Source: Pedobacter sp. HDW13 (lineage in GTDB: Bacteria; Bacteroidota; Bacteroidia; Sphingobacteriales; Sphingobacteriaceae). From it: a stretch of DNA of 64,000 bases. Made by a program: the position numbers and the translations under genes. This document shows, piece by piece, positions 6,719 to 43,697 of this stretch. The first letter of the stretch is position 1. The number at the start of each line of letters is the position of its first letter. The DNA lies in contig NZ_CP049868.1 of NCBI RefSeq assembly GCF_011303555.1, positions 3,782,001 through 3,846,000 on the forward strand, in the 5' to 3' direction. The notes under the pieces are model-generated. The model was given only the letters and a program-made list of their open reading frames with translations, searched no databases and was not told where the DNA came from.

Positions 6719-9700
6719 CTAGTTTTCCTTTTCGTCTTTACTTCTTTGAACCCTTTTTAGAAGTTCCCGCATAAATTCATTAGTGTCATTCTGATCTTTG
6801 TTCTTTTGTTTAGGAATTTCTTGTTCTTGAACCACTGGATGTATTGTGGGCAAGAACCTTAATGTTCCTCCATCATTAAGTATTAATCCAGAAAAACTTT
6901 GGGGCTCAATTCGACTATTTATTATTCTCCTTTCCCCAGAACAGTCCAAAAGATTCGTAATCCCTTTTTCTTTAATTGTTTTTCTAAAATTTTGCGTTCA
7001 ACAAGAAGCCGGCTTTTGCTATCGTGCCTTACATGCGGGTCGAAACAAACAACTTCCCCTTTACTGTTTACAAATTCGCCTTCTTCTTGACCATACTCAA
7101 GTTCGAGTGCTTTGAACAATTCCATAGATGGCTTATGGAAATTTGTGACTTGATCCTTACTGTTGTCAAATTCTTCCTCCCAAAGAAAGTCTATGGCAGT
7201 AGGGGCAACACTTCCAATATATTTTCTATTGACTTGAATATTTCGCCATTCAGGGTTCTCCTTTATAAAGTCTTTAAATGCTGGTGACCAGTAAAATTCG
7301 CGGTTCAATAATTCATGGACTGTATGTGCTTCTGGCATCCATCTGCCCATAAAATCTTCTGTCATTAATCTATTTGTAATGGAGTAATAGGAATCTTCGG
7401 CAACCAGGTAACTACGCAATTGATAATAGAAGTCCTTATATGGGGTTGAAAAATCAAATGCTCCGGATTTATTAGAACTAGAATAGCTCTCATTGGCTTC
7501 TAGTGCCAACCACTCGATTTCCGGTTTGTTATTTTCCTTAAATGAAATAACGGACAAAGGATCAAAGGCATAACGATGTGATGACATCCACTCTGGGTCT
7601 GGTACATCTTTCCAAACCGCAAAATCCGGCACATCAAAATCCAAATGGATTTTGGCTTTTTCCGGGTTCTCTAAAAATGTTGGGTCAATATCCCGGACAT
7701 AGGGTTCCCATGGCCCATTATAGGAAAATGAAAGGTCATTATCTGCCACGCGGGCAAGGATTTCATAAAAAGCAATCCATTGATATTTTTTACCGATTCT
7801 TTCATTTAGCCTTTTCCCAATGCGAGCATTATACCCGCCTTCCCGATCAAATGATCCATGCTTATCTATATTATAGCCGTATTTGTCAAAAATATATTTT
7901 ACGGCAAGATTGCTTAATCCTTGGATATTCGCATTCTTCCAAGGTCTTAAAGCGCTTTGAAAAACATACCTGCCAAAGTCCCCGTACATTCGACCATCCC
8001 GACCCTTCTCTGTTATCATGGAATTTAATATTGAAATACCGGCATTGAATTTACCAGCAGACCCCTCGCCGATTTTTTCTTCCATAAGTGCAATTTCCTT
8101 ATTGGCTGGAAGTTTGCTCTCCAGGGAGCTATTGTATGGTGGCCTTATTTCCCTTACATTATAAATTCCTACTTTCCTGAAAACAGCGTATTCTATAATA
8201 CTTCTGGCATAGTCCCTAGCTAGGATATCAGGAATGATTTCACTTGTTTCAAAGAAATTTTTATAAATGTAATCTGCTATTGATTTCAAAAATTCCCCCG
8301 ATGATTTTACTGCGCATCCATAAGCAATTGCATATACCCTCTGGGTTACGTATGGATCGTTTACCATTCTGAATTTTTCAACCCAGGTAAGTAAATGATC
8401 TTGATAAGTTAGAAAGATGTGTATGAGCACTTTGGTTGAAATATCCCTTAAGGTTCTGTTGGTACTGGTGAGAAACCATCCAAGAGCAGTAACGGCAAGA
8501 GAAACAGTCTCCTCATCATAGACAATTCCATCATTAATTTTCCAGGCCCATTTTAAAAGCCGTTTCACGACATTTATCTCGCTACCTACCTGATTATCGC
8601 TATATCTATCATTCAAATAAATATTCCATGATGCATCTCGATCTGCCATTGAAAAATCACTTAACATGCCATGCAGGAAAAATGCGTTGAAAGGTTGGTC
8701 CGTTTCCAGGCACATGTCAATAAGTTCATCATAAAATGAATTTTTGGACAATCCTTCTGTTTCAATATAGCCCTGGGTAAACGCCTCAAGTTTTTCTGAA
8801 TCGACTTTTGCGGTGCGCCAGGAAAAACTTTTGTAAAACGCTCTGACTATTGCCGGGGCATATTGTTTTTCTTTAGGCAAGACTTCCCAAAATTCCTTTT
8901 GCCTTTGTTCTGGTAACTGTATACTGAGGGCATCAATCAATCCTTGGTTAAGTTTGTTCGATTGTGCATCGGAGAGAATAGTTTTGAACATGCCTTGGTT
9001 GTGCCAATTTGGATTCAACGGATCCGGGAGGCTAGCTATAAGCTCCTTAGCCATTAAATGATCACCTAATCTGTCATATGCATACGTAACTTGGTACCTC
9101 AAATCTGTTCGTGAAATATATTTAATGGTATCAATAAAAATATTTTCGTCAATTAGCTTATCCAAAAATCCTGGTTTACCTAAAAAGCGGTGAACTACAT
9201 CTTCTGTGAGCAAAAATGCATCTTCATAATCCAAGTTGCGATCTTCGATCTTCACCACCTTAGCTGTATAAAAATCAAGAACGCGTTTAACGTGATTTAT
9301 TTTGTGCCATGCATAACCAAATTCTTTATGTTTCCCTATTTCACGGTTGACATATTCAATATAATATTGAAAAATCCGGTCAATGCCAATCTTCTTGAAA
9401 TCCCTAATATTGGCCTGATCCTTTTTTAGCCCAATGCATAGCAACTTTAAAAATAATGGATTGCCAAACTCCTTATTGAGCATAGGTACGCTATCGATAG
9501 GCAATTCATAGTGTTTAGCAAAGGAAATGAATGCTTCACGCTCAAAGCCAGAAAAGCCGGAGTGTCTGATAATAAAAATATCTTGGAGTTCTGTAGCCTG
9601 GAAAAGGAAATCCCTATAAGTAGTCCTATAGCTTATAACCAATCCTATGTATTGGTATGGTTTTATGGCATCGACAAAATTTCTGAACCCATCTCGCCAT

Positions 9701-11232
9701 GATACAATTCCTTCGCCTTCATTAATGGCATCGATCATAATAAATACCCGCTCATTAATTCTACGGCCTTTCGCATCAATAATTTCAAGAAACGAAGTGA
9801 GTTCGCAGCTGCAACCAAGTTGGGTTAATATTTGATCCCATGGACGATGGATCCCGTCAAAGTTTTGTCCAAGAAACAGCAAGGTAAATTTATTTGCTTC
9901 AGTTCTTTGCGTTACAATATCTGCTAAAAGATGCGATTTTCCAGATCCAGGTTCTCCTTCGATAAGTATTAATGACTTATCAAAATTTTGTCCTGCACCG
10001 ATGAATCTTTCGGCCTCCCGAGAAAAAATTGAGACTGCTTTATCAAAGTCATCAAACTGAACCGTTGTAGATATAAAATGACTTTTTAAAGAATACATTA
10101 TATTATACATGCCATAACCAAAATCATATGATTGGCGTTGCTTCTTCCGAATTTCATTCCAATCAAGTTCGAGTAAGCGGCTGCTATTAAATGCTTCTGA
10201 AAAATAGGCTATCAATTCCCCTATCTTCAAAATAATCTCTTTTCCGGTAAATAGGTTACCTTTTGTGTTATAACCAAAGGTTATTGTTTGTTTTTTTCGA
10301 TTAAAAGAGGATTTTTCAATCTTGCCTAATTTCGAGTATGAATCCAATAGGCCTTTATAAACCTCAACCAACAAGTTCAAGTTTGATTGCAGCTCTTCTT
10401 TCTTTGCAGATGTCAGAGCCAGTGTATCAAAGTTTTCGCCTATTTTCAGCTTGAGGTTTAGTTCTGGGGAGTACCTAGGGCCTAAAGCAGAAATGGCCAA
10501 TTTATTTTGTTTGAATGCCAAGGAATAGGGGACAAGGCGTTCTTCCTTTGCACTGTAAATGCTTATACCGGCAATCATTTCCTCCATCCAAGGAGCAATT
10601 TTGCTCGCCTCAAATCGTCTGCCGGCTTCGCTATATTTAGAGATTAACCCTATCAAAAATAATTTTTCATTTACCTCTATACACAGACCACTTCCAGAAT
10701 ACCCTTCTACATTATAATCGCCTGAGGTATTTTCATCACTAAAGTCATTGTTGCACTGGGCGTGGATATTTGCCCCTTCGCTATCCTGTGAAATTATTTC
10801 CACGCCGGATGTCAATGGAATTTCATTATTTGTGAGGGAAGGAAAGCCTTTGAATACTCCGACGAGCTCGGAATATTCATAATTTGAAAGATAAGTAACC
10901 GGGAATCTTCCCAAAGCACCTTCTAGGGATTCCCGCTTTAATTTGAGTGCAAGAATATCGGGAGAATTTTCATTTTTTACAATAATGGAATCTGTATCCA
11001 ATAAAGAATATGAGGACAAAATTTCTGAACTCTCTGTTTTCTTTCTTGAAATTAGGATCTGTTTTAAAATTGGTTTTGCCTTGAAGCTTTTTCCGTAGAT
11101 ACAATGTTTTGCCGTTAAAATATAAATCCATTCAGATTCTTCGCTGGGTAGGTACACATATCCGCTTCCGGTATACTTACCTTTTGTCTTTACCCTGACG
11201 GCAACTTTTGAAATTAAATTTTCTTTTCCCAT
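6719..11232 (-). CDS. Trypsin-like protease-STAND NTPase, Avs-like antiviral sensor (one frameshift near the 3' end)
   Basis: The gene encodes about 1504 residues once one base is restored in the C4 run at 6934-6937 (G4 in the coding strand); without it the last 70 or so residues are lost. The N-terminal 200 residues look like a trypsin-fold protease with His43 (TAKHC), Asp92 (PDILAL) and Ser179 (GYSGSG). Residues 420-510 carry a STAND/NACHT-type NTPase with Walker A GEPGSGKS (426-433) and Walker B VFIMID followed by AINEGEG. The long helical C-terminus would be the sensor. Fusion of an effector to a STAND NTPase is the architecture of Avs (AVAST) proteins. The gene starts 4 bp after the stop of a metallo-beta-lactamase gene, the same pairing of activities that I recall for type I AVAST. 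Defence function is inferred; the catalytic motifs are seen. Confidence 0.75.
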
Positions 11233-11236
11233 AACC

Positions 11237-12295
11237 CTAAAATTTTATATCATAATATTTTTGAGCCCCTTTGGGAAAGGAACATTTAAAATTATATTTC
11301 TTACGTGCATTTTTATCAACGGCAAATATTGACCTTAAGGTTGAATTGTTATAGTTAAATATAAAGTTGATCTTCTTATCCTTATCCCTACTTGGATGAC
11401 ATAAGATTTTTGCAAGTGTTTCTTTGTTCGGGAGTTTGTTGGAATTGTCGCCATTTGAGCAGATGATAAATTGGCTGCATTCAATTAGCCCATATAGAGA
11501 TTCACTATAATTATAAATGCTACCGTGATGCGGGAGTTTCACATAATCGCATTTGAGTTTTTTCTCTTTCGATTCCTTTAAATATACCTGTAAGCCCTGC
11601 TTTATGGCATTCGGGGTGGCATCGCCTAAAAACAGAATCTTTGATCCATTAAAGTTCAATATAAATGCGATGCTGCTGAGGTTATTAATATCGTTTTTGC
11701 TTTCCTTTCTGTCGCGTTTACTGCTGAGATTCTCTATGGAATTTTCATAGTCATTGTTTTCAACGGCTTTCAACCTCCCCAACTTCTTTTTTTGATATTC
11801 AGCCTCTTCCTTTTCCCATTTTTCCCCCAATAGGTCGTATTGAGCTTTACCAGGAGCAATGACCTCTATCGCCAGGCCTTGATTTGTCCAATTTTTTCCT
11901 GTTAGGATTTGATTGTCCAAAACTGTTTTTGAACCCTTTAAAAAGTCCCTTATCTCAATCCCTTTATCTACACTTTTCTCCTCGGATTTTTCTTGAATCC
12001 TAAAATTGTCAAAGCAATTAAACCACAACTCTTCAGGCATCCGCTTGGGTGCAAATTTCTTGTCCCGGAAGAAGGCAACAGCTCCATTGATGTGGTCCGC
12101 ATCCAGATGCGTTAAAATCCAAAGCTTAAAATTTTCATTTGGCTTATCAAATTTCTTCATTTGAGATTTTAATGCAGTTATATAAGTATCCATATAGCCA
12201 GAATCAACCACTATGTTTTGAACAGGTTTCTGTCCGTGTTTTATGATTATCGCATCGCCGCATTTAGTTTGTAAAATCCTTATTATTAGAGTCAT
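11237..12295 (-). CDS. ComEC-like metallo-beta-lactamase-fold protein, partner of the STAND protease
   Basis: The 352-residue protein has the metal-binding motif HLDADH (His63, Asp65, Asp67, His68), a later LFLGDAT strand and a KLPHHGS motif. All are typical of MBL-fold hydrolases of the ComEC/Rec2 type. There is no signal peptide or membrane segment, so it should be cytoplasmic. It is the promoter-proximal gene of a two-gene minus-strand operon, with the protease-STAND gene 4 bp downstream. In defence systems such MBL proteins are thought to be nucleases or accessory hydrolases. The substrate is unknown here. Confidence 0.75.
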   Translation of the reverse strand: MTLIIRILQTKCGDAIIIKHGQKPVQNIVVDSGYMDTYITALKSQMKKFDKPNENFKLWILTHLDADHINGAVAFFRDKKFAPKRMPEELWFNCFDNFRIQEKSEEKSVDKGIEIRDFLKGSKTVLDNQILTGKNWTNQGLAIEVIAPGKAQYDLLGEKWEKEEAEYQKKKLGRLKAVENNDYENSIENLSSKRDRKESKNDINNLSSIAFILNFNGSKILFLGDATPNAIKQGLQVYLKESKEKKLKCDYVKLPHHGSIYNYSESLYGLIECSQFIICSNGDNSNKLPNKETLAKILCHPSRDKDKKINFIFNYNNSTLRSIFAVDKNARKKYNFKCSFPKGAQKYYDIKF

Positions 12296-13361: not shown

Positions 13362-13411
13362 CAATTTCAAATATGTTTCTATTTTTGTAACCATGTATAA
13401 GGTTGTGTAAT

Positions 13412-14629
13412 ATGGTTATAAAAGACAGGTACTCCCTAGAGGAGGTGGCTTCGATACTCTCCAGAAGCAAAGAAACCTTAAGGAGGTGGGATCGGGCAGA
13501 AAAGCTAAGCGCCCACCGTGACCCAATGAGCAATTACCGATACTATACACTAGATCAACTCCAACAGTTCGAAGAATTCCAGAATATGCCCAAAAACAAA
13601 ACCCTAGACCAGAGGATATCATTGCCCAAAGCCGACAACCAATACAGTGTACTTGAGCTCTTTGCCGGCGCCGGCGGGCTGGCTATAGGCATGGAGAAGG
13701 CGGGGCTAAAATGCCTTGCCCTAAATGAAATTGATAAATACGCAGTTAAGACTTTACAGGCAAACAGGCCGGAATGGAATGTCATTCCTGGCGATATACG
13801 GGATATTTCCTTTAAGGAATACAAGGATAGGGTTGACGTGGTTACAGGCGGCTTTCCTTGCCAGGCCTTTAGCTATGCCGGAAAACGGTTCGGGTTTGAT
13901 GACGCAAGGGGAACCCTTTTCTATGAGTTCGCAAGGACGGTACAGGAAACCAACCCAAAGATCTGCATCGGGGAGAACGTGAAAGGCCTGCTGAACCACG
14001 ATTCGGGACGTACGCTTAAGACAATGATTGCCATTTTGGATGAGATCGGTTATAGGGTTATTGACCCAAAAGTATTGCGTGCAATCTTTTACAATGTCCC
14101 TCAAAAGCGAGAACGACTGATATTGGTTGGGGTAAGAAAAGATATTGACATCGATTTCAATTACCCCGTGGCCAGTAAAAAAGTATTCACCCTCCGAGAT
14201 GCACTAAAGGCAGGAGCACTGTTTGAGACAGACGTACCGCATTCTGCCGGGACGAAATACCCTGCATCAAAAAAAGATGTTTTGGACCTTGTGCCCCCAG
14301 GCGGGTACTGGCGGGATCTTCCCTTGGACATCCAGAAGCAGTATATGCAAAAAAGCTTCTATCTTGGCGGTGGAAAGACTGGCATGGCCAGGAGGATCAG
14401 CTGGGACGAGCCATCGCTTACGCTAACCTGCAGTCCTGCACAGAAACAGACCGAAAGGTGCCATCCTGACCACACCCGACCTTTTACGGTAAGGGAATAC
14501 GCCAGGATACAGACTTTTCCTGATGACTGGGAATTCCAAGGCCCCGTTTCGGCACAATATAAACAGATCGGGAATGCCGTTCCTGTAAATCTCGCTGCCG
14601 CAATCGGGGCTCAATTGTTGAATTCCTGA
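13412..14629 (+). CDS. DNA (cytosine-5) methyltransferase with N-terminal helix-turn-helix, Eco47II/Sau96I type
   Basis: The protein carries all main C5-methyltransferase motifs: FAGAGG (motif I), GGFPCQAF (IV, catalytic Cys), ENVKG (VI), QKRERL (VIII) and QIGNAVP (X). An N-terminal block of about 55 residues (RYSLEEVASIL, SKETLRRWDR, YRYYTLDQL) is a MerR/excisionase-type winged helix, which could let the enzyme bind its own promoter. It converges with the restriction gene at 14704-15467, so the expected target is GGNCC. That specificity is inferred from the partner enzyme. An in-frame TTG at 13403 exists, but the ATG at 13412 is the better start. Confidence 0.85.
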   Translation: MVIKDRYSLEEVASILSRSKETLRRWDRAEKLSAHRDPMSNYRYYTLDQLQQFEEFQNMPKNKTLDQRISLPKADNQYSVLELFAGAGGLAIGMEKAGLKCLALNEIDKYAVKTLQANRPEWNVIPGDIRDISFKEYKDRVDVVTGGFPCQAFSYAGKRFGFDDARGTLFYEFARTVQETNPKICIGENVKGLLNHDSGRTLKTMIAILDEIGYRVIDPKVLRAIFYNVPQKRERLILVGVRKDIDIDFNYPVASKKVFTLRDALKAGALFETDVPHSAGTKYPASKKDVLDLVPPGGYWRDLPLDIQKQYMQKSFYLGGGKTGMARRISWDEPSLTLTCSPAQKQTERCHPDHTRPFTVREYARIQTFPDDWEFQGPVSAQYKQIGNAVPVNLAAAIGAQLLNS

Positions 14630-14703: not shown

Positions 14704-15467
14704 TCAAAGCTTATCAAAGCCATTGTAATATCCGAAATTATCAAAAGTAATCTGATCGAGGATGCTGCGGTGGCTTTTTTCAATCTCTTTGTTGATCTCT
14801 GAAAGTGCAGAATTCTTTGCCTGCTCCTCTGCTTTGGGAATCGTGGCCAGATAGGCATCTGTAGCCTTTGGCAAGGCAAGGTATAGCTTTGCCAATGCAT
14901 CATCCTCATCAGTTAAAAGTGCGTAGAACCGGTCGCCGGAAATCTTGTTTACCCTGCTATGGCTATACTCTTTCCCGTTTATGATGCCTGCCCATTTGGA
15001 ATCAAAGCTGTCAGTAGCCAGGATTTGTACCCAGTAGCAAGTCGATTTCTTGAAATTGTCTGCATATTTCGCCAGTTTCTGGAAAAGGGCTTCCGCGGCA
15101 CTGCTATTCATTGTATTGTGCTTGTTTTTGATATCGGCAAAAAGGGTGTCATTTTTTGCTTTGATATCAAAACCGCTAAGTTTTCCGACTTCAAACCCCT
15201 CAATTCCCCCAAGATCTGTTCGTGGAAAGTCCCTATGGAATTGTTTATTGATTTATCGATTTGGCGGAGGATCTCCGATTCGATCAAGGCCTCCTCATCG
15301 ATTTCATTGAACTTGGTATCAAAGGTCAGCTTAATGGTGTCTACCTTATTTTTATAAAAGTCCTTTTTATTTACGTTGTTTTTGGCGCGGAGGTAAGAGT
15401 TGTGGAGATTTGCGATACATTTCAAAAAGTGTTCATCAGAAATGTAATTTAGATAGTTGTTTGCCAT
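14704..15467 (-). CDS. Type II restriction endonuclease, Eco47II/Sau96I family (frameshifted)
   Basis: Two overlapping open frames join into one protein of about 254 residues when one base is added to the C5 run at 15206-15210 (G5 to G6 in the coding strand). The product then begins MANNYLNYISDEHF and continues GGIEGFEV, SGFDIKAKND, FADIKNKHN, MNSSAAEALF and KKSTCYWVQI. This is the pattern of Eco47II-family enzymes that cut GGNCC. FDIKAKN and FADIKNKHN supply the acidic-x-Lys residues of the PD-(D/E)XK core. The gene is convergent with its methyltransferase, 74 bases apart. An intact methyltransferase and otherwise clean sequence argue that the break is a consensus error. Confidence 0.75.
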
Positions 15468-16109
15468 TCTGTTTTTCTTCAAAAATAACAAAATCTTCAA
15501 TATTTGTTATTTGAAATAAATACTGTATCCTGAGGTGTTTACTGAGGCAGTGCAACTGAAAGAAAACAGTGATTAATCGCATGGTAGTTTAATTTAAACA
15601 AAATCGGATAGCGTCGATATGCAAAAAGGTAGCATAATTTCGGAAGAGAAAATACCTGCGGCATTGTAATTGAAAAAATGCACTAGGATACTTAGGGGAC
15701 TTATTCAATTTCGTTGATTTGAAACGAAGTTTTAACTCATCTATTTTTTACCTAAATTGGCACTGTGCTAAATTTAGTCTGGAATTTCGACAATTACATT
15801 GTTACGACTGGATGAAACATAAGTACTTTTTGACTGTTGTTGATTTATGGCTGGAAAAAAGAAAATGAAACCCTTTCATTCCAATGGAATATCGTCCCAT
15901 TCCATAGTGGAAAAAAGACTCTAAATGTTTGATGAAAGTGGCGATGCAGGAGTACGGACTTGATAAAAAAACTATAATCCAACGCTAAACAAGGCTGGGT
16001 GAAGAAAAATATCTAAAATACAAATATTAGGTGTTAATTGTATCAATCAGGTTATCAGTTTACTGAAACAATCAATAAAATACACCTTCGTTACAGTATA
16101 AAACCTTAA
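15468..16109. other. Non-coding stretch between the restriction gene and the two-HNH cassette
   Basis: About 640 AT-rich bases hold no convincing complete gene. The one recognisable item is the duplicated 5' end of a vsr gene at 15814-15887. The rest looks like degraded intergenic DNA. Confidence 0.5.
15814..15887 (+). repeat. Direct repeat, left copy: vsr upstream region and first codons
   Basis: These 74 bases match 20797-20870 at 67 of 74 positions, including the start codon and the first codons of the intact vsr gene (MAGKKKxKPxHSNG). Here the frame stops after about 25 codons. The two copies bracket the ATPase-HNH-HNH cassette, which suggests the cassette was inserted into, or duplicated next to, the start of a vsr gene. 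Confidence 0.8.
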
Positions 16110-17159
16110 TTAAAACATATACTTAAAGCCATTATTGCTTGCAATAGTAATTAAAGGCTCGATGGTTGTTTTAAACTTAAGCTTATATTCAGCTGGTAAT
16201 TCCTTAACACTTTCCAGGTCAGGAAAAATGCTCAGATAATCTTCCAATAGCTTTTCTTTGGGTATTTTATATTTAATTATTTCGATGGCAGTTTTCTGCA
16301 AGTGATAAAAAGCATCAAAGTAAATATCCATCTGGGGTAGCTTATCCGATTTCGTACTGTTAAAGGAAGGGTTTGCAGGTATCAGATTCCAGAGCAGATC
16401 ATGCGAAACAAATGCATAGGGAATAAAGTGCTCTACTGCAAAGTCATCTTTGTATAGTTTTTGGTTTGTGTAGATGCAATCTACACCGCCTAACTCTTCA
16501 ATTACAATATTCCACACCTTACGCTGTTTTACCAAACTGTTTCTTTTTGCAGGCTTAATTAACTTATTCGGAATATCTGGGACATTAGGATTGTGTTTCT
16601 GCAGATACAAACTTAGTTTCCAGTAACAAAAGCTTTTTAAAATTCCTGAATTCTTACTGAGGTAATCTATCCAGATTGGATTAATGGTAATATGAGTTTG
16701 ATCAACCGCATAAAGGCAATTGTTTTCAAAAAATTGTGATGCCTGATAAACTGAATTTCGGTTTTCTGCAATGGATGAAAACCAAGGGCTTAAAAAACGG
16801 TGCGGGACCTGTTTATCAAAATGCCATAATAACTTCTGTGTAGCCAATAGGTTACTATTGCTCAAGCGTTGTTTGATCTTGTTTCGATCTTCATCAATAT
16901 TGATCCCTTCAATTGTTGCAATTTCTTTCACTTTATCATGCAACTGATCCTGTTTACCGAAACTAATGTGGAAATAGTTGATGGTGTACCAACTAGCTGC
17001 AACCATACCCACAAATATTCTTTGCTTAGGGATATGATAATGACCATTTTCTACTTCATCTAAAATAGCTAAGAACCAATAGAATTTATAAGCCGCAGCC
17101 GTGTTATTAAAACTGGCAGCTAAAAGGTTTACAGGTAAGTATTCGTGAATAGGAATCAT
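16110..17159 (-). CDS. HNH-family protein, third gene of the ATPase cassette
   Basis: The first 200 of the 349 residues are mostly helical without a recognised domain. The C-terminal third holds an HNH-like core: CIYTNQKL (Cys228), AVEHFIPYAF (Glu243, His244), WNLIPANPSFN (Asn258, Asn263) and KSDKLP. The second Cys pair of zinc-binding HNH proteins is absent. It lies 168 bases downstream of a second, different HNH gene on the same strand, so it probably belongs to the same operon. A nuclease role in phage defence is inferred from motif and neighbours. It could also be an independent solitary HNH gene. Confidence 0.65.
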   Translation of the reverse strand: MIPIHEYLPVNLLAASFNNTAAAYKFYWFLAILDEVENGHYHIPKQRIFVGMVAASWYTINYFHISFGKQDQLHDKVKEIATIEGINIDEDRNKIKQRLSNSNLLATQKLLWHFDKQVPHRFLSPWFSSIAENRNSVYQASQFFENNCLYAVDQTHITINPIWIDYLSKNSGILKSFCYWKLSLYLQKHNPNVPDIPNKLIKPAKRNSLVKQRKVWNIVIEELGGVDCIYTNQKLYKDDFAVEHFIPYAFVSHDLLWNLIPANPSFNSTKSDKLPQMDIYFDAFYHLQKTAIEIIKYKIPKEKLLEDYLSIFPDLESVKELPAEYKLKFKTTIEPLITIASNNGFKYMF

Positions 17160-17327
17160 TTAGCTGCAAGGTAATAATCTGATATGGTGGATTAAATTTC
17201 TTTTTATAAAATGCATATAAAAAATTAAGTGAACACCTCATGTACCTTGCGGGAGCATTAGCTTTATACTGTTTCAATAAACTTATCAATAAATGCCCGC
17301 GTAGACAGCTTTATCCATGCTTGTATT

Positions 17328-18398
17328 TTACATCTCCGCTAGCATTCCTAATTTCTTTAAAATATCCTTTTTAAATTTACTTAAAGGTCGCTTGTGAAAG
17401 TTGTTTTGATCGTAAATTACTCCAAATAGTAATCGATAAACTTCTTCTTTACTCATTTTTGACCTTAACATTTTTTGCATTTTATCAATATATCCTAAAG
17501 AATAGTTTCTTTGAATAGTTATCATATCTCGTAACTCTGAAATATTACTATTATATACCTCGTCTATGTACATTGCTTCTATTGTATTTTTGGCTTTGAA
17601 TCCTTGCCTATTCCCATTTGATGTATCGTTGACAAAAATTCTGAAGCCGCGAAGAGAGGTATAACCATAATCAAATTCAAAATCTTCGCTTTGCGTCTGG
17701 TCTACGTAAGGATGAATATATTTATTTAACAATTGGATACCAGCTCCTTTCACAGAACTATTACAAGAGCTACATGATGGTATCAAATTATAAAATGAAA
17801 TAGCTAATAAGGGAAATTTAGATTCGGGAAACCAATGGTCGAGGGTAGGCCTTATTACTGTTTTTTTTGCTTCTGTGATTACGGTTGATGTGTAACTACG
17901 GTTGCAATAAGTACAAGTATATCTGTCTAACTTTTGGCAAAGTTTGTAGGAACTGTAGATTACATTGGTATTGCTATTAAACCATTTGTAATTAAAAATA
18001 CTGTTCAACTGTTTTACAAAGGGGTTTATGAGTTTATATTCTGATTGGAAATTAACGCTTTTCTTTTTCAAGTTCTCTGCTGAAAAATCTATTAGATAAG
18101 GATATATTTTACTTAAATTCATTGTGGGCAGCATTTCGTTCCAAAAAAAAATGTTTGTCTTTTGTAACGTTGATGGATCGCCGATTAAAATTTTGTCAAT
18201 GTTGTTATCGCGAAGTAGAAATGTTTTGATCGACACTTTGAGACGACTCACTGGACGGATACCGCTTGTGCATATTATACAGCCAGCATTTGAGCAAGCG
18301 GGCTCACCTATTTTTTTGTTAACATAACACCTCATGTATTGATGGTGTATTGTCCTTGCAGAAGATATCGTCGGACTAGCTGGGTCTAGATAAAGCAT
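17328..18398 (-). CDS. HNH endonuclease, PtuB-like partner of the ATPase
   Basis: This 356-residue protein has a zinc-binding HNH core: TCTYCN (Cys162, Cys165), LDHWFPES (Asp187, His188), FYNLIPSC (Asn204, Cys209) and CSSCN (Cys212). The N-terminal 45 residues form a second Cys cluster (Cys24, 35, 40, 43), possibly another metal site. It starts 2 bases after the stop of the ATPase gene, so the two are certainly co-transcribed and probably coupled. An ATPase with an HNH protein is the Septu (PtuA/PtuB) arrangement. Assignment to Septu proper, rather than to a related ATPase-HNH system, is uncertain. Confidence 0.75.
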   Translation of the reverse strand: MLYLDPASPTISSARTIHHQYMRCYVNKKIGEPACSNAGCIICTSGIRPVSRLKVSIKTFLLRDNNIDKILIGDPSTLQKTNIFFWNEMLPTMNLSKIYPYLIDFSAENLKKKSVNFQSEYKLINPFVKQLNSIFNYKWFNSNTNVIYSSYKLCQKLDRYTCTYCNRSYTSTVITEAKKTVIRPTLDHWFPESKFPLLAISFYNLIPSCSSCNSSVKGAGIQLLNKYIHPYVDQTQSEDFEFDYGYTSLRGFRIFVNDTSNGNRQGFKAKNTIEAMYIDEVYNSNISELRDMITIQRNYSLGYIDKMQKMLRSKMSKEEVYRLLFGVIYDQNNFHKRPLSKFKKDILKKLGMLAEM

Positions 18399-18400
18399 AG

Positions 18401-20662
18401 TTATAATTCATTTGGTTTTAAGTTATGTTCGTTCATTAATTGGTTGATATAATCTTTTATTAACTTTTTGTGATCATCACTGCCATCTAAGATAACTTCC
18501 TCATACATTTCCATTAATTTAAAACGTAAAATCGGCTCACCAATCATATTGATAACTTGATATAATTTCTTGCTTTTTTTTTCCTCTTCTATTTCGTGCC
18601 TAAAATCGATTGTTACAATTTCCGATGCTTTAATCCTTGCCTTGTGGTCAGCAATTATTTTTTTCTCTGCGAGCGTTTTTGTTTTTTTTCTAATGAGATC
18701 TTCAATTTCCTTAAATATCCGAATATGCTCTAGTGTATCAATGCATTTAGAAATAATTTTTTCTGCATAAGCTCCAATTAAACTTTCATCTAGAAAAAAA
18801 GAATCTGCTAACATCTCGTGTATATTTGCGCCAAAAGTTGGAGTGGTAGTTCCTGTTGAAGGTTTTCCTTCATCTAATTTTAGCACATTTGTGTTTGGGA
18901 TATCGGATAGAATAAAGGGGGAGTGTGTTGAAAAAAGTATGTTTATTGCTTTGATATATTTCAAGTGGCATCTTTGGATGTTTTCTAACAAAAATTTCAA
19001 AAAATCACGCTGATAACTAGGGTGATAATAAAGTTCAATTTCATCGAGAACTAAATTGATATACTTATAATCATATTTCGCCCCCTCTCTTGAGTCAAGA
19101 TTAAGCAAGTGGTAAAGGACTGAATGTATAGAATGAATAAGTTGTTGCTCTCCTGAGCTTAGCTGAGAGAAAGGAAACTCTTTTAAACCGTCAGATATAT
19201 TTATTGAAGGTCGGAAATATGCGACCGGTACAAACTGTGCTAACGTTTTATTTTTTAAAAGCGATTCACTAAACGCATTTTGAACTACTTTCTCAAACTC
19301 GATAAATTTTAAAGACATGCTATAAACAGGAAATTCCGGGAACTCTTCATCCTGTGAGGTAGTCCATTTTTTATTATGGAATTGCTGGTGAATAAATGAG
19401 TTTACAGCTTGCCTAAGTTTTAGGGTGATGTGGCTTTGATCGGTTAAAATCTGTTTAACGAAGTCCTGAATGTTTCTAATCAAATAGAATTGAAATTTAC
19501 CATCTTTATCTACATAAGCTTCTGCATATTTCTGAAATTCACTATAAGTATTAACTATTTTAATTAATTTAGTCACAATATATAGTCCAAGTTGAAAATC
19601 CATTTCATTCGGAGTAAAATTATCTTGAACATTTTTTATTTTAAACCTATCAAATGGTTTTGCCAAATTAAACCAAGTTCCTAAATTATCTTTGGTTGTT
19701 TTTACTCGCAAATCATTTACGGATCGTATATTAAAAAACCTTAAAATCTCCGTAAACAGATCCGCCAAATCTATTTTGGTTTCATCTTTTGATTTAAGGT
19801 AATAATCAATAAGATCAATATCCTCTACATACCCAAGTCTCGATGGCCGGATAATAACACTAATGCTGCTGATTGACTTATTGTTAGTTAAGTCTTTAGT
19901 TGTGAACTGTTCATGGCTCAAGTTCGTGAGTATACGCGTTTGTGCTAAATGTAATTCGATATTAATATTAATGTTGCCTTTCTCCCTGAAAGGATTAAGC
20001 ACAATCGGCGTTCGATAGCCATCGTTTTTATGAAATAATGGTTGTAGCCAATAGTAATTACCCGATGCATTTAACCCATATTGAGAATAATTCACGCAAA
20101 TAGTGTAAAACAATTTTTCGTAATTAAACCCAGGGCGTTTCCATGTTCCATTTTCGAGTGAGAATTGATTAACCTGACTTTTGGTTTTCCGGATCAAAAT
20201 TTGTTCAGCCCCTACTTGATAATATAATTCAATTTCAGTAGAGTCAAGTGTATTATCCACACTTTCAAGCAATGCCTTCCATTGAATAATTTCGGGAAAT
20301 TCAACTGTTTTAGTTTGAAGTCGTTTACGAAGGTGCGTTAAGCCTTTATTTTCTGAAACACAAAAAACTAACAAGTAGAGCATTTCTAAAATACTGCTTT
20401 TACCAGATCCATTACGCCCCAGAAGAGCTCCTACATGCACATGAATATCACTCCCATCCCTTTCTATGTCATATAAAGTTGTGGGGTAATTTTGCACAGT
20501 GTTGATTTTCTTGATGGACCGATAATCCTTTATTTCTTGTAATTCATTCCCATACTTATCCAAAAAGATAGTGTCGTTTGAAAACTTATATAAAGTGTCA
20601 ATGACAAGCTTTTTTTGAAATACGGAATCTTTATTTAGTTTTAATGCTAACAGTTTAAACAT
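18401..20662 (-). CDS. SMC/ABC-type AAA ATPase, PtuA-like
   Basis: The 753-residue protein carries Walker A GRNGSGKS (82-89), an ABC-type signature LSSGEQQ (about residue 510), Walker B INLVLDEIE and the switch motif STHSPF. The coiled middle and the absence of membrane segments identify an OLD/RecF/SMC-like ATPase. It heads a minus-strand operon with one HNH gene 2 bp downstream and another further on. Such ATPases are thought to sense invading DNA and license the nuclease. It is larger than the PtuA proteins I recall, so a variant system is possible. The start ATG at 20662 gives a natural beta-strand beginning (MFKLLALKLN). Confidence 0.75.
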   Translation of the reverse strand: MFKLLALKLNKDSVFQKKLVIDTLYKFSNDTIFLDKYGNELQEIKDYRSIKKINTVQNYPTTLYDIERDGSDIHVHVGALLGRNGSGKSSILEMLYLLVFCVSENKGLTHLRKRLQTKTVEFPEIIQWKALLESVDNTLDSTEIELYYQVGAEQILIRKTKSQVNQFSLENGTWKRPGFNYEKLFYTICVNYSQYGLNASGNYYWLQPLFHKNDGYRTPIVLNPFREKGNININIELHLAQTRILTNLSHEQFTTKDLTNNKSISSISVIIRPSRLGYVEDIDLIDYYLKSKDETKIDLADLFTEILRFFNIRSVNDLRVKTTKDNLGTWFNLAKPFDRFKIKNVQDNFTPNEMDFQLGLYIVTKLIKIVNTYSEFQKYAEAYVDKDGKFQFYLIRNIQDFVKQILTDQSHITLKLRQAVNSFIHQQFHNKKWTTSQDEEFPEFPVYSMSLKFIEFEKVVQNAFSESLLKNKTLAQFVPVAYFRPSINISDGLKEFPFSQLSSGEQQLIHSIHSVLYHLLNLDSREGAKYDYKYINLVLDEIELYYHPSYQRDFLKFLLENIQRCHLKYIKAINILFSTHSPFILSDIPNTNVLKLDEGKPSTGTTTPTFGANIHEMLADSFFLDESLIGAYAEKIISKCIDTLEHIRIFKEIEDLIRKKTKTLAEKKIIADHKARIKASEIVTIDFRHEIEEEKKSKKLYQVINMIGEPILRFKLMEMYEEVILDGSDDHKKLIKDYINQLMNEHNLKPNEL

Positions 20663-20796: not shown

Positions 20797-20870
20797 GAAA
20801 CATAAATACTTGTTGGCTGTTGTTGATTTATGGCTGGAAAAAAGAAAATTAAACCCATGCATTCCAACGG
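20797..20870 (+). repeat. Direct repeat, right copy (belongs to the intact vsr gene)
   Basis: Partner of 15814-15887 with 7 mismatches in 74. It contains 33 bases upstream of vsr and its first codons. Together they flank a 4.9 kb cassette. Confidence 0.8.
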
Positions 20871-21315
20871 TAGGACATGCTATTCCGCAACTTCTTCGCG
20901 AAGCTTCATTATGTCAAGGATTCGGTCAAAGGATACAAAGGCTGAATTGGTTTTAAGGAGGGCGCTCTGGGAAAAAAACATCCGATTCCGAATACATTCT
21001 GATTTAGTCTTTGGGAAACCTGACATCTTTATAATGAAACATAGGCTTGCTGTTTTCGTGGATGGCAGTTTCTGGCATGGATACAACTGGGAATCCAAAC
21101 GAATACAGATTAAAAGCAATGTTGATTTCTGGGTGGCCAAAATTGAGCGGAACATGGAGCGCGACAGGAAAGTCAACATTACCCTCTCTGAACAAGGCTT
21201 CACAGTCATGAGGTTTTGGGATCATCAGGTTTTAAAGGAGCTTCCAAAATGTGTGAACCAAGTGTTGCTGTATATTGAATCCTGTAGAATGGGTAAGATC
21301 CCAGATTTTAATTAG
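20830..21315 (+). CDS. vsr: Vsr-family mismatch endonuclease (zinc-site variant)
   Basis: This 161-residue protein matches Vsr in order and spacing: MSRIRSKDTKAE, LRRALW, GKPDIFI (catalytic Asp) and VFVDGSFWHGYNW. Vsr nicks at T:G mismatches formed by deamination of 5-methylcytosine, so it protects genomes that carry C5 methyltransferases. Two such enzymes are encoded within 8 kb. In the usual FxHGCFWHxHxC segment this copy has Asp, Ser and Asn-Trp, so the zinc ligands known in E. coli Vsr appear lost. It may be a restriction-type Vsr homologue rather than a repair enzyme. The 5' end is duplicated at 15814. Confidence 0.8.
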   Translation: MAGKKKIKPMHSNGRTCYSATSSRSFIMSRIRSKDTKAELVLRRALWEKNIRFRIHSDLVFGKPDIFIMKHRLAVFVDGSFWHGYNWESKRIQIKSNVDFWVAKIERNMERDRKVNITLSEQGFTVMRFWDHQVLKELPKCVNQVLLYIESCRMGKIPDFN

Positions 21316-21417: not shown

Positions 21418-21826
21418 ATGGCAGACGTACACAGTAAAGAAATCCGCTCATACAACATGAGCCGCATCAAGGGTAAAAATACCAAACCCGAAATGCTGGT
21501 GCGGCAGTTTCTGCATGCCAATGGTTTCAGATGCCGCCTCCAAGTTAAAGATTTACCGGGCAAACCCGAGATTGTGTTACCAAAATACAAAACTGTTATA
21601 TTTATACAGGGGGTGCTTCTGGCATGGTCACGATCAATGCAGGTAATCCCAAAAACTAATACTGAATGGCGGCTAAACAAGATTACTGGTAATAAAACGA
21701 AAGACATCATGGAAATCGAGACGCTAAAAAATCAGGTTGGCAGGTTATTGAAATATGGGAGTGTGAGTTAAAGCCGAAATTACGTTGCATAACTTTAAAC
21801 GGGCTAATTTCATCAATAGTGCTATA
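21418..21826 (+). pseudogene. vsr: Second vsr gene, decayed
   Basis: The start is well preserved (MADVHSKEIRSYNMSRIKGKNTKPE) and the GKPEIVLPKYK block is intact. The next block changes frame: GCFWHGHDQCR is only readable after removing one G from the G5 run at 21609-21613. Several bases seem missing after 21640, and one base is missing near 21735 before ENQ-type and IEIWECEL-like residues in the last frame, which ends at 21826. With at least three lesions, one not in a homopolymer, this looks like true decay rather than a single error. Unlike the first Vsr it retains the Cys and His zinc ligands. It stands directly upstream of the second C5 methyltransferase, its expected partner. Confidence 0.7.
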
Positions 21827-21851
21827 GGAAGCTTTCTTTAAAGTGCAACGA

Positions 21852-21885
21852 TTTTCGTTTTGCCAAAAAATCTTTGCTATCTTCA
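21852..21885 (+). promoter_or_regulatory. Putative promoter of the second C5 methyltransferase
   Basis: A -7 element TATCTTCA (21878-21885) lies 20 bases after TTTTCG (21852-21857), close to the Bacteroidota pattern TTTG-N20-TAnnTTTG. It lies inside the longest open frame, which supports translation starting at GTG 21906 rather than GTG 21843. Confidence 0.4.
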
Positions 21886-21905
21886 CAAATTTATTAGACA
21901 TTAAC

Positions 21906-23159
21906 GTGAACTATATAGACCTCTTCGCTGGTGCAGGCGGCTTGTCCGAAGGCTTCAAAAGAGCTGGTTTTGAGCCAGTTGCTCATGTCGAAATCGACAG
22001 TGCTGCTTGCTATACACTAAAAACCAGGGCTGCTTACCACTACCTAAAGTCAAATAATCTTTTCGAGAACTACCTGGATTATCTTAAGGGAAATATAAAT
22101 CGGAATGAGCTATATTCTTTTATACCTGAAGAGCTTAAAAATTCGGTAATCAATAAAGCCATTGGAGAGGAAAATAATCCTGTTATTTTTGGCGCTATTG
22201 ATAGACAATTAGCAGGCAAGGAGGTTGACTTAATTATTGGTGGTCCTCCTTGTCAGGCGTACTCCTTGGTTGGCAGAGCCCGTTCAGATGATGGAATGAA
22301 AGGTGATTCCAGAAATTTCCTCTATGTGCAGTATGCTAAATACCTTGAAAGATATCAACCCAAAATGTTCGTTTTTGAAAACGTGCTTGGTTTAAAGTCA
22401 GCTGGAAAAGGTGTTTACCTGCATAACATGGAGAAGCTTTTCCTTAAAAAGGGATATAAAATAAATGTGTTTTCTGTGAAAGCAGAAAACTTTGGGGTAC
22501 TTCAAAAAAGACGCAGGCTTATCATAATAGGCTGGAAAGATGATTTTACACCAAACTTACCAGATCTGGGTAATTTTAAAAGCGGGATAGGCGGTATGGT
22601 TTCTGATTTATTTTCTGACTTGCCGGATTTACAGGCAGGGGGTGGGGTAGATAAGTTTACAAAATATGCCTCTACCAGTAACGATTATCTGGCCAATGCG
22701 CATATCCGAAATGGCATTGATACGCTTACCCAACATATAGCGAGGCCACATAATGCTCAAGATAAAGAAATTTACCGGATAGCTACCGGAAAATGGAACG
22801 ATAATCAGGAACGCTTAAATTATAATGATCTTCCTGAGCATCTGAAAACACACGATAACAGAACTTCCTTTTTCGATCGTTTTAAAGTTGTTGGGGCTAA
22901 TTTAAATGCATCTCATACCGTTGTGGCACATATTGCGAAGGATGGACATTATTATATCCATCCAGATCAGTTACAAAACAGATCAATTAGTGTTCGTGAA
23001 GCAGCTCGTTTACAATCTTTCCCCGATGATTTCTATTTTGAAGGTGTGAAAGAGGGTGCTAACCGTACAGCTGCTTTTAAGCAGATTGGGAATGCGGTGC
23101 CTGCATTAATGGCGCAATCTATAGCTGATCAAATTATTAAAAGAGTAAAGTTGAAATAA
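21906..23159 (+). CDS. DNA (cytosine-5) methyltransferase (Dcm-like)
   Basis: The product has the C5-methyltransferase motifs YIDLFAGAGGLSEG (I), GGPPCQAYS (IV), FENVLG (VI), QKRRRLIIIGW (VIII) and QIGNAVPALMAQ (X), and is about 417 residues long. The GTG at 21906 (tattagacattaacgtg) is preferred because family members start right before the IDLFAG motif and because a promoter-like sequence lies upstream within the longer frame. It is preceded by a vsr remnant and converges with an operon encoding a GHKL ATPase-nuclease. These may together form a restriction-like unit. The target sequence cannot be read from the protein. Confidence 0.85.
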   Translation: MNYIDLFAGAGGLSEGFKRAGFEPVAHVEIDSAACYTLKTRAAYHYLKSNNLFENYLDYLKGNINRNELYSFIPEELKNSVINKAIGEENNPVIFGAIDRQLAGKEVDLIIGGPPCQAYSLVGRARSDDGMKGDSRNFLYVQYAKYLERYQPKMFVFENVLGLKSAGKGVYLHNMEKLFLKKGYKINVFSVKAENFGVLQKRRRLIIIGWKDDFTPNLPDLGNFKSGIGGMVSDLFSDLPDLQAGGGVDKFTKYASTSNDYLANAHIRNGIDTLTQHIARPHNAQDKEIYRIATGKWNDNQERLNYNDLPEHLKTHDNRTSFFDRFKVVGANLNASHTVVAHIAKDGHYYIHPDQLQNRSISVREAARLQSFPDDFYFEGVKEGANRTAAFKQIGNAVPALMAQSIADQIIKRVKLK

Positions 23160-23176: not shown

Positions 23177-23200
23177 TTAATTGAAATTTATTTCAATTAA
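23177..23200. terminator. Bidirectional hairpin between convergent genes
   Basis: A perfect 10-bp inverted repeat (ttaattgaaa / tttcaattaa) with a 4-base loop sits at the junction of the two convergent genes and overlaps the last codon of the minus-strand gene. It is AT-only in much of the stem, so terminator strength is uncertain. Confidence 0.4.
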
Positions 23201-25053
23201 TTTTGATGTTCATTATATGCTTCGATAAATTCCCTATGATATTCTTTTGATTGTTCGAGCAATTCTCTGTAAGTTTTAACGAACACCTCACCCGATTGCA
23301 TATAGGTTTGTTCTTTTCTTTTGAAAAGGTTGTCTTCAGCTTTTTCTCCTCCTACTACGTAGCAGACAACTTTAGAAAAGCCACTTTGTGAGGAATATCT
23401 ATCTTTCAAGAATGCTCCATACTCATAGGCTTGTTCTAGCGCGTTTTGATCTACTTTGAAATTACTTCTTTTGATTTCGATAACATATAAAATTTCACCC
23501 AGTGCATTACTGCATAAGAAATCGATCCTTCTGTTATTTAGATCAAGTCGATCATCTGGAAAGGTTTCTTTTAAAAGGGTTGTATAAGTTACCTCATCTC
23601 TGAATTCTAAAATCCTTGGGTCTAACAACCAAGAGAATTTTTTAAGGAAATTATGAAGTGTGGGCACCTCTCTAGTATTGGTCCGAATATATTCTTCAAA
23701 TTGTTTTATTACTTCTATCCTAGAAAAAGCCAAATCTCTAAATTGCTTAGCTTCAATCATTTTCCAATCATCCATTAGTCTTAATAATGTTGGGATATCT
23801 TCAGGTTTTGAAACATCAGCAATTCTTGAGGCATACTCTTTGAAGGTTTTATTTTCAAACTTATCGATTACATTACTTATTATTTCTTTCGATTCTTCAA
23901 TATCTATATTAGGGTTTTCTAAAATTGGATCGATAATTCTGTTACTCAGTTCTCTCTCATAAGTCGGCAGAGTGTCTTGCCAATCTTGAATGTCTAAATC
24001 CTTATGGTGCTTAATTTCTGACCGTTTTAGAGAACTTCTTTTTTCCCGCCACTCACTACCAATTTTTTTTACAACTTTTTGGATGTAGCTCTGTAGTTCC
24101 TTTGTTTTATCATTTTCCCAGTTTAACGAATGCCGATCTGTGGATATTACATCTTCATCAAATTCGTCTATAAAATCAACTTCTAGATAACCAGTAACAT
24201 AACTATGGAATTGATCATTGTCCCTTAAACCATAAAAGCTTGCAGTATTAACAATTTTTCCCCTCGACGTTAAATATATACCACTCATCTCAGTGTCTTT
24301 GATTGGTGTCTCTGCCGTGATTATTGTCCCTTTAATTCTGCTTGAATATGTGTAGTTGTCATCATATTTGTCATCTGGAAAATTCCATTCAAACTGCTTT
24401 TTTAGATCAGTAAATTTAAGCTCGTTCGTAACCTCCTTTTCTTCCAAGTCATTCAAGTACAAAGTAGTAGACATCCGATCAAAAATCAGAAACTTTTTAG
24501 ATAAAGAAATCGCGAGTTCATCAAGGTTGAATCCTGATTTTCTTCTTACTTTTTTTAACTTGAGAATTAAACCATTGTCTGCAATTTCGGAAGGTGTATT
24601 CTTTTTTACTATTTTGGGATTATATGCATTATTTTGACTTGCTTTTATATCCATTAGATTCATTATGAAATGATTTTCAAGATTATCTTTAATGGATATT
24701 ATCTCGATTTCATCACAAATACCAAATACAGCTAATTTACCAAGCCCCTTCTTTCCAATAACGCTTCTGCCTTTGGCCGTAATTTCATTCGTTGTTCTGC
24801 GCCTATTTCTCCCTATTAATAAATATTTTTCATTCAATTCATCAAATGTCATTCCTTCACCAAAATCCTGATAGATTATTTCTTTAACCGTTTCAGTATC
24901 ATAAAATTTTATTGATACACTATCGGAATCTGCATCCCATGAATTCGATATTAACTCTGACAGTACGCTTGGTAATTTAGAGTATAACGAAATGCCTAAG
25001 TGCTCGATGGTATTGGGATCAAATTTAAGTGTGAGTTTAGCGTTATTTTCCAT
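23197..25053 (-). CDS. GHKL (HSP90/MORC-like) ATPase fused to a PD-(D/E)XK nuclease
   Basis: The N-terminus of this 618-residue protein is a GHKL ATPase: SELISNSWDAD (Glu33, Asn37, Asp40), DFGEGM (63-68) and GKKGLGKLAVFG (100-111). The C-terminal 130 residues contain RRIDFL and LYVIEIKRS, the Asp and Glu-x-Lys of a restriction-type nuclease (the DUF4263-like style). MORC/HSP90-like ATPases fused to or paired with nucleases are known from bacterial defence islands. It is the last gene of a four-gene minus-strand operon behind an XRE regulator and converges with a C5 methyltransferase. The probable role is methylation-linked restriction, by inference. Confidence 0.75.
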   Translation of the reverse strand: MENNAKLTLKFDPNTIEHLGISLYSKLPSVLSELISNSWDADSDSVSIKFYDTETVKEIIYQDFGEGMTFDELNEKYLLIGRNRRRTTNEITAKGRSVIGKKGLGKLAVFGICDEIEIISIKDNLENHFIMNLMDIKASQNNAYNPKIVKKNTPSEIADNGLILKLKKVRRKSGFNLDELAISLSKKFLIFDRMSTTLYLNDLEEKEVTNELKFTDLKKQFEWNFPDDKYDDNYTYSSRIKGTIITAETPIKDTEMSGIYLTSRGKIVNTASFYGLRDNDQFHSYVTGYLEVDFIDEFDEDVISTDRHSLNWENDKTKELQSYIQKVVKKIGSEWREKRSSLKRSEIKHHKDLDIQDWQDTLPTYERELSNRIIDPILENPNIDIEESKEIISNVIDKFENKTFKEYASRIADVSKPEDIPTLLRLMDDWKMIEAKQFRDLAFSRIEVIKQFEEYIRTNTREVPTLHNFLKKFSWLLDPRILEFRDEVTYTTLLKETFPDDRLDLNNRRIDFLCSNALGEILYVIEIKRSNFKVDQNALEQAYEYGAFLKDRYSSQSGFSKVVCYVVGGEKAEDNLFKRKEQTYMQSGEVFVKTYRELLEQSKEYHREFIEAYNEHQN

Positions 25054-42750: not shown

Positions 42751-43697
42751 ATGGAAGAAAATAGATACGATCTTAACAAGATTAGGGAAGAAACCGATCT
42801 TGTAACCCTGCTTTCAAAACTAGGCTATCAGCCGCTCAAGCAGTCTGCAGGAGAACTTTTTTATCTTTCTATGCTCCGCGATAGTGATACTATGCCTTCT
42901 TTCTGCGTGAACGAAAAGCTAGGTATCTGGTATGATCATGGCCTGGCTAAAGGAGGCAATGTAATTGATTTTGCCTTGAGCTTTTGGCCTGCCCTCACTT
43001 TCCGGGAATCGATAGGGAAATTACTCGAAGCCTACGGAAACCTTGACGCTGTACCACTTAAAGCTAAGCCGGCCCAAATCGAAATACCTTTAAAACATCC
43101 TTCTTATTTAATTAGGGAGGTAAGAGAATTGGGAGGGAACCCTGCGATCAGTGATTACCTCGCACAAAGAGGAATTTCAGCAGTTGCAGTTGGATTTATT
43201 AAAGAGGTTTATTACAGCATTAAAAAGGACAATGGGAATAGAAAAGAATTATTTTCTGCTGGCTGGCAGAATGATCTTGGGGATGGGAGGTAAGAAACAA
43301 ACTGTTTAAAGGGTGTCTTGGTAAAAAATCAATGAGCTTTATTTCCGGAGATCCGGATAAGCTTGCTGTATTTGAAGGAATGATGGATTTTTTAAGTTGG
43401 AGAATTGAGCACCGTGAAAACAGTGCAAGTGCCCTGATTTTAAATTCAGTTTCCTTTTTAAAGCCTGCAATACAAAAAGCCAGCGAATTCGCTCAGGTTG
43501 AAATATTTTTTGATCACGATCCTTCAGGAAGAAAATCAAGCGAGGAATTTTTAAATAAGCTCAGCTATAGTAAAGATTGTTCTGTGATTTACCAAGGTTA
43601 TAATGATTATAATGAAATGATTCAGCATCGGCTGAATGAGGCAGTAAAAACGGATACAGATCAGAATATAAATCTATATAGAAAAACTGCACGGTAA
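42751..43697 (+). CDS. Primase-like protein with CHC2-type and Toprim domains (frameshifted)
   Basis: Two frames join into about 315 residues when one G is added to the G4 run at 43279-43282, making LGGWEVRNKLFKGCLGKK continuous. The first part resembles the N-terminal domain of ICE primases (YLSMLRDSDTMPSFCVN, GIWYDHGLAKGGNVIDFAL). The second is a Toprim domain with the Glu in LAVFEGMMDFLSW and the Asp pair in IFFDHDPSGRKS. It would prime second-strand synthesis of the transferred strand in the recipient. It is common as the gene before mobA in Bacteroidota elements. The break is probably a consensus error. Confidence 0.8.

What the first reader, a model, noticed from the sequence alone, without database searches (positions are those of the whole stretch)
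16110..20662. ATPase plus two dissimilar HNH proteins: an expanded Septu-like cassette
An SMC/ABC-type ATPase is coupled to a zinc-type HNH protein (2-bp gap) and followed on the same strand by a second HNH protein of different type without the second Cys pair. Septu as usually described has one ATPase and one HNH protein. The first HNH protein also has an extra N-terminal Cys cluster. A three-component system with two nucleases may be a new variant.
Basis: partly seen in the sequence, partly recalled or inferred. Interest (0 to 1): 0.65.

Follow-up and report, generated by a model that had tools for sequence, protein, structure and literature searches.

The report
Septu-like defence pair beside unrelated nuclease
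The stretch holds a two-gene bacterial anti-phage defence pair of a known type (an ATPase and a zinc-type nuclease), and the third gene beside it is most likely an unrelated nuclease gene that happens to have landed there, so it is largely ordinary.

Summary
The ATPase (753 aa) and the zinc-type HNH protein (356 aa) form a coupled pair whose best models are PADLOC's candidate PDC-M62, a relative of Septu. The third gene (HNH349) does not belong to it. Of 31 ATPase ORFs in 29 loci (window included), 30 have the HNH356-like gene next downstream; only the window has HNH349 there. Of 84 distinct HNH349 proteins, only the window and one Mucilaginibacter locus have the pair in the stretch held, the latter 2.4 kb away in another order. 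The block sits between two copies of the start of a vsr gene, as if inserted by recombination. HNH349 belongs to a widespread family of unknown function; 32 of 84 have a HIT or methyltransferase-HIT gene next downstream, but not the window's clade. Its N-terminal half resembles, weakly, the sulfur-binding domain of a restriction enzyme (not significant by sequence). The N-terminal cysteine cluster of HNH356 is real, in 4 of 30 relatives.

The parts
18401..20662 (-). ATPase of the pair (753 aa), PDC-M62A-like, related to Septu PtuA
17328..18398 (-). zinc-type HNH nuclease of the pair (356 aa), PDC-M62B-like, related to PtuB; N-terminal Cys cluster C24/C35/C40/C43
16110..17159 (-). HNH349: separate HNH_4 nuclease gene, not part of the pair
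17160..17327 (.). 168-bp spacer between the pair and HNH349; at most 15 bp of it, next to the HNH349 start, match the nearest HNH349 genes
15814..15903 (+). left copy of a 90-nt direct repeat: upstream region and first codons of a vsr gene, interrupted
20797..20886 (+). right copy of the repeat (84% identical): start region of the vsr gene at 20830
20830..21315 (+). Vsr mismatch endonuclease 1
21418..21771 (+). Vsr mismatch endonuclease 2
21843..23159 (+). cytosine-5 DNA methyltransferase 2
23197..25053 (-). BbrUII/HgiDII-like restriction enzyme (299 bits, under the curated cut-off of 550)
14704..15500 (-). Eco47II-type restriction enzyme, split over two overlapping ORFs (14704-15111 and 15108-15500)
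13403..14629 (+). cytosine-5 DNA methyltransferase 1 with MerR-like HTH

Best explanation
Two independent things lie side by side in a defence island of a Pedobacter-like chromosome. (1) A two-gene Septu-like system of PADLOC's candidate type PDC-M62: an ABC/OLD-class ATPase that by analogy holds and gates a zinc-type HNH nuclease; when a phage is sensed the nuclease cuts a nucleic acid (tRNA or DNA) and the infection aborts. (2) HNH349, a stand-alone HNH_4 nuclease with a helical N-terminal domain, probably a restriction-like DNA nuclease. They became neighbours when DNA was inserted at a vsr gene. Shown: gene content, coupling of the pair, conserved catalytic motifs, lack of a recurrent link between pair and HNH349, flanking vsr repeats. 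Inferred: anti-phage function, gating, target, the insertion route, and the nuclease activity of HNH349.
For: Best PADLOC models PDC-M62A/B. 30 of 31 ATPase ORFs are followed by an HNH356-like gene, -143 to +4 bp apart. No HNH349 in the 28 fetched pair stretches; the one weak profile hit there (4.6e-4) is the pair's own HNH protein. No HNH349 in ORFs of 150 aa or more at the 17 viral loci. 35 of 198 genomes have a HNH349 match (fragments counted) and 8 of these a fetched pair; outside the window the nearest on one contig is 68 kb away, in G094. 82 of 84 distinct HNH349 without the pair in the stretch held. In ten close loci the DNA match that holds HNH349 ends at most 15 bp before its start and 4 bp after its stop, even in the 90.7% identical L091, whose match begins inside the gene. 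vsr-derived repeats around the block. Mechanism by analogy: Septu needs both ATPase and HNH motifs and cleaves tRNA-Tyr (PMC13096335, passages); retron-Eco7 PtuAB depletes tRNA-Tyr (PMC11555353, passages).
Against: One further locus, Mucilaginibacter sp. UR6-11 (L222), has HNH349 and a pair 2.4 kb apart, with two genes between. The three genes share strand, low GC (0.32-0.35) and one flanking repeat pair, so they could have arrived together. Only 65 of the 84 HNH349 proteins have 5 kb held on both sides, and five of the seven other genomes with both have them on different contigs, so distances there are unknown beyond the fetched stretches. The pair scores far under NCBIfam's PtuA/PtuB cut-offs (39 of 500 and 17 of 150 bits), so its target may differ from Septu's. 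The AlphaFold model of HNH356 failed (mean pLDDT 44).
Confidence: 0.85

Rival explanations
1. A true three-component Septu variant: HNH349 is a second nuclease of the ATPase-HNH pair.
For: Same strand, 168 bp apart, similar GC; both inside the vsr repeats; a second, differently ordered neighbourhood in L222.
Against: 2 of 84 HNH349 proteins, the window's included, have the pair in the stretch held; 0 of 28 fetched pair loci and 0 of 17 viral loci have HNH349. The last bases before HNH349 are conserved with its near relatives, and a promoter-like TAnnTTG (motif recalled) lies in the 30 nt before 6 of 24 HNH349 genes against 31 of 493 other ORFs, which hints at transcription of its own.
Confidence: 0.05
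2. HNH349 is the restriction enzyme of the neighbouring cytosine-methyltransferase/Vsr modules.
For: Vsr genes lie within 6 kb of 6 of 84 HNH349 proteins and methyltransferases of this cluster within 6 kb of 5 of 84, the Vsr upstream and divergent in all six (L092, L098, L099, L112, L163, window; also at the broken copy in L096).
Against: 78 of 84 show no Vsr and 79 of 84 no such methyltransferase within 6 kb in the stretch held. Each methyltransferase of the window has another candidate restriction enzyme beside it: the split Eco47II-type gene and the HgiDII-like gene.
Confidence: 0.06
3. HNH349 is a modification-dependent (type IV) restriction enzyme whose N-terminal domain reads a DNA mark, possibly phosphorothioate.
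For: Best VIA-align match of the model is ScoMcrA 5zmm, model 6-203 on chain 92-243, Z 6.6, rmsd 3.3, 118 aligned, 8% identity. Conserved YK and VP motifs line up by eye with the HK and P of sulfur-binding domains; in ScoMcrA H116, R117 and P165 contact the sulfur (PMC6224610, passages). The usual partner, in the one member tested, has a half like TIGR04096, DNA phosphorothioation-associated methyltransferase, 5.9e-14. DndC genomes (15 of 198 over the cut-off) overlap HNH349 genomes 6 against 2.7 expected, p 0.03.
Against: The tool warns that Z under 8 is common by chance. hhalign E 0.043-0.055; the sulfur-binding template ranks third of 28 by score, behind two unrelated families. The conserved His of sulfur-binding domains is Tyr here. 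The window's genome has no DndC, nor have 6 plasmids with distant relatives.
Confidence: 0.3

Closest known systems
PDC-M62 (PADLOC-DB candidate system)
   Same: Both proteins have it as best model over most of their length; adjacent ATPase and HNH genes
   Different: ATPase longer (753 aa against model lengths 597-746); extra N-terminal Cys cluster found in 4 of 30
Septu (PtuA/PtuB)
   Same: ATPase followed by zinc-type HNH protein; matches to PtuA 6.5e-17 and PtuB 4.2e-9; PtuA 8ee4 only solved relative of the ATPase at E 0.01
   Different: Weaker than to PDC-M62; far below NCBIfam PtuA/PtuB cut-offs; both proteins longer than the PtuA and PtuB models shown
OLD-ABC ATPase plus HNH dyads in BREX neighbourhoods (PMC12839542, passages)
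   Same: An ABC ATPase genomically linked to an HNH nuclease
   Different: Here in an island with restriction-modification and AVAST-like genes; the dyads' sequences were not compared
PF13395 HNH_4 proteins annotated 'HNH endonuclease domain-containing protein' (for HNH349)
   Same: HNH_4 domain; same whole-length architecture in plasmid relatives at 27-33% identity
   Different: Function not known; the window copy lacks the HIT or methyltransferase-HIT partner
ScoMcrA and other sulfur-binding-domain HNH enzymes (for HNH349)
   Same: N-terminal helical domain then HNH domain; top structural match of the N-terminal half
   Different: HNH_4 instead of the HNH_2 of the two relatives tested; sequence similarity not significant

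Membership tests
PDC-M62 (PADLOC candidate) | ATPase matching PDC-M62A | tested here: met
   6.9e-44, best stretch residues 75-647
PDC-M62 (PADLOC candidate) | HNH protein matching PDC-M62B | tested here: met
   5.1e-52, residues 57-352
PDC-M62 (PADLOC candidate) | the two genes adjacent on one strand | tested here: met
   2 bp apart
Septu | PtuA-like ATPase with Walker and signature motifs | tested here: met
   PtuA1 6.5e-17, 8ee4 1.4e-4, motifs conserved
Septu | PtuB-like zinc HNH protein | tested here: met
   PtuB1 4.2e-9; CxxC, DH, N, CxxC conserved
Septu | curated NCBIfam PtuA/PtuB cut-offs (models of the retron Ec78 proteins) | tested here: not met
   39.1 of 500 and 16.9 of 150 bits
Septu | anti-phage activity needing both proteins | not testable with these tools
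   needs plaque assays
Three-component Septu variant | third gene recurs beside the pair | tested here: not met
   0 of 28 fetched pair loci besides the window; 2 of 84 HNH349 proteins, window included
Type II restriction enzyme of the adjacent methyltransferase | constant pairing with a cognate methyltransferase | tested here: not met
   methyltransferase of this cluster within 6 kb of 5 of 84, Vsr of 6 of 84, in the stretches held
Phosphorothioate-dependent SBD-HNH restriction enzyme | sulfur-binding domain | tested here: inconclusive
   VIA Z 6.6; hhalign not significant
Phosphorothioate-dependent SBD-HNH restriction enzyme | cleavage of phosphorothioated DNA | not testable with these tools
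   needs biochemistry

The most novel reading that the evidence does not exclude
HNH349 is the nuclease of an undescribed Bacteroidota defence system, HNH plus HIT or methyltransferase-HIT, in which a divergent sulfur-binding-type domain reads a DNA mark, and in Pedobacter the nuclease spreads as a single gene without its partner.
Probability: 0.2. Interest if true: 0.55.

Novelty: new member of a known kind. Interest (0 to 1): 0.2.

Why it matters
It removes a candidate two-nuclease Septu from the list and shows how islands can bring unrelated nucleases together. It also points to a widespread HNH family with a recurrent HIT or methyltransferase-HIT partner; the listings of searches, and the passages seen in two of the papers listed, show no description of that unit in the held library.

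Tried and rejected
Three-component system: rejected by comparative genomics. HNH349 as partner of the methyltransferase/Vsr module: considered from L092, L096, L098, L099 and L112, then set aside because both methyltransferases have other candidate enzymes. Insertion element using the 3' end of HNH349 as attachment site: C-terminal fragments lie downstream of full or longer copies in four genomes, but by eye no recombinase was recognised among the genes between, and the break points vary; not pursued. Terminator between HNH356 and HNH349: no stable fold (z 0.49) and no terminator-like site there. Sulfur-binding domain by profile comparison: not significant; two unrelated families (the HIT-partner family and the ATPase) scored higher. 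A motif of sulfur-binding domains recalled from memory found nothing in the loci then held. Structure of HNH356: model too poor to use. Foldseek on the HNH349 model: no match at E 0.001 in PDB or viral libraries. VIA-align: the C-terminal half matched Cas9 HNH domains at Z 6.0 or less; most chains tested cover only that half. Viral contigs: the first scan with HNH349 alone found none, the profile scan one partial match. Literature: of 5,160 papers for the 15 listed were off topic; one search gave one paper, not read; of the 14 papers listed passages were seen in four.

Full report
What is there. The ATPase (753 aa) ends 2 bp before the HNH356 start; HNH349 starts 168 bp after HNH356 ends. Pfam gives AAA_21 for the ATPase, a sub-threshold HNH match for HNH356 and HNH_4 for HNH349. 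PADLOC gives PDC-M62A and PDC-M62B as best models of the pair, with PtuA and PtuB weaker; HNH349 has only marginal hits (PtuB1 0.013, ZorA 0.016). PDC-M62 is an unpublished PADLOC candidate; one paper found 203 PDC-M62 calls that duplicated Septu calls (PMC11811056, passages; the only paper in the held library naming it).

The pair as a family. In 198 genomes (window's included) the ATPase search hits 38 and the HNH356 search 36. I fetched 28 stretches from 27 genomes, most of 20 kb, around the stronger hits; weaker hits were not fetched. With the window, 31 ATPase ORFs were recognised and 30 have the HNH356-like gene next downstream; the exception is an extra ATPase in L136. Metal and catalytic residues of HNH356 are conserved (C162, C165, D187, H188, N204, C212 in 30 of 30; C209 in 27), those of the ATPase motifs in 24-31 of 31. 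The N-terminal Cys cluster is in 4 of 30 (the window, L132, L134, L144), so it marks a sub-branch. Distant relatives occur at 17 viral-contig loci, with the ATPase found upstream in 16; the 17th locus is cut off.

The third gene. HNH349 matches, fragments counted, are found in 35 of 198 genomes, 31 of them in the window's genus. A genome-contig scan found 308 relatives, of which the best 80 were returned. Together with the loci and the window this gave 84 distinct proteins of 300 aa or more. The pair lies in the same held stretch in 2 of 84: the window and L222, where it is 2.4 kb off with two genes between. Of the 84, 65 have 5 kb on both sides. Genome-level overlap with the pair is not significant (the 119-genome genus set there is read off the handle numbers, and only fetched pairs count).

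How they came together. A 90-nt direct repeat, 84% identical, lies at 15814-15903 and 20797-20886, start to start 4983 bp apart. The right copy is the start region of the Vsr gene at 20830; the left copy is the same region of another vsr gene whose reading frame then stops. The block of three genes lies between. In L092 the HNH349 gene is divergent from a Vsr gene with 116 bp between, the arrangement that the pair interrupts in the window. In the ten close loci compared, the DNA match that holds HNH349 ends at most 15 bp before the start and 4 bp after the stop; the most similar copy (L091, 90.7%) matches only from inside the gene. Four of these loci (L092, L096, L098, L163) share vsr or methyltransferase DNA with the window as separate matches. 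I infer stepwise or joint insertion at a vsr gene by homologous recombination; the uniform GC does not tell one arrival from two.

What HNH349 may be. Of 84 distinct proteins, 32 have a HIT or methyltransferase-HIT gene next downstream on the same strand (31 of 74 loci in the genome contigs set; 28 of the 32 listed there overlap HNH349). On a tree of 82 proteins that partner is clustered (8 changes, shuffled mean 25.7), and the window's starred clade of 7 has none. The methyltransferase half of the one partner tested resembles TIGR04096, the phosphorothioation-associated methyltransferase (52 bits, cut-off 150). The genome of the window has only weak matches to this partner (best 8.4e-8, HIT half). 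Other genes within 6 kb: a family of PLD-helicase-DUF3427 proteins, whose tested member PADLOC calls a type IV enzyme, in 8 of 84; a family of Schlafen-group-3-type helicases in 7; and a family of HNH_2 proteins in 8 (two members tested, one with MrcB_N). The AlphaFold model is good (mean pLDDT 88). Its C-terminal half matches Cas9 HNH domains (Z up to 6.0) and its N-terminal half best matches the sulfur-binding region of ScoMcrA at Z 6.6. The resemblance is weak: profile comparison places the right motifs together but is not significant, and two unrelated families score higher. I keep it as a hypothesis.

Mechanism. For the pair, by analogy with Septu: both ATPase and HNH motifs were needed and tRNA-Tyr was cut in one Septu (PMC13096335, passages); [quoted passage not shown] Which applies here is unknown. 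For HNH349, a stand-alone DNA nuclease is inferred from its domain and island setting only.

Verdict. Sound observation, sound Septu-like call, unsupported three-component claim. The pair is a new member of a known kind; the third gene is an unrelated neighbour whose own family deserves a look.

Noticed in passing
L174:9992-11892 and 31 similar loci: HNH349 relatives form a two-gene unit with a downstream HIT or methyltransferase-HIT protein, 28 of 32 overlapping, across Bacteroidota; the listings of searches show no description in the held papers.
   Followed up: partly
L099 and L123 (G004), L115 (G070), L105 (G047), L098 (G068): C-terminal fragments of HNH349 lie downstream of a full or longer copy on the same strand, up to four in one genome.
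   Followed up: partly
window 15814-15903 and 20797-20886: 90-nt direct repeat made of the start of a vsr gene, flanking the three-gene block.
   Followed up: yes
window 14704-15500: Eco47II-type restriction enzyme split over two overlapping ORFs in different frames next to its likely methyltransferase.
   Followed up: no
window 6922-12295: AVAST-like genes: Avs2-like 1436-aa protein (942 bits, cut-off 1000) and Avs1a-like metallo-hydrolase (170 bits, cut-off 420).
   Followed up: no
window 23197-25053: HATPase-domain protein related to BbrUII/HgiDII restriction enzymes beside methyltransferase 2.
   Followed up: no
window 43000-62000: A run of small same-strand genes that looks like a conjugative-element module of Bacteroidota (by eye from the ORF list; no family search made).
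   Followed up: no
L217, L231, L238, L094, L192, L234: HNH349 near a DUF3427-type helicase with a NUDIX gene and/or a Schlafen-group-3-type helicase with a MazG-like gene: nucleotide hydrolases recur around this nuclease.
   Followed up: partly
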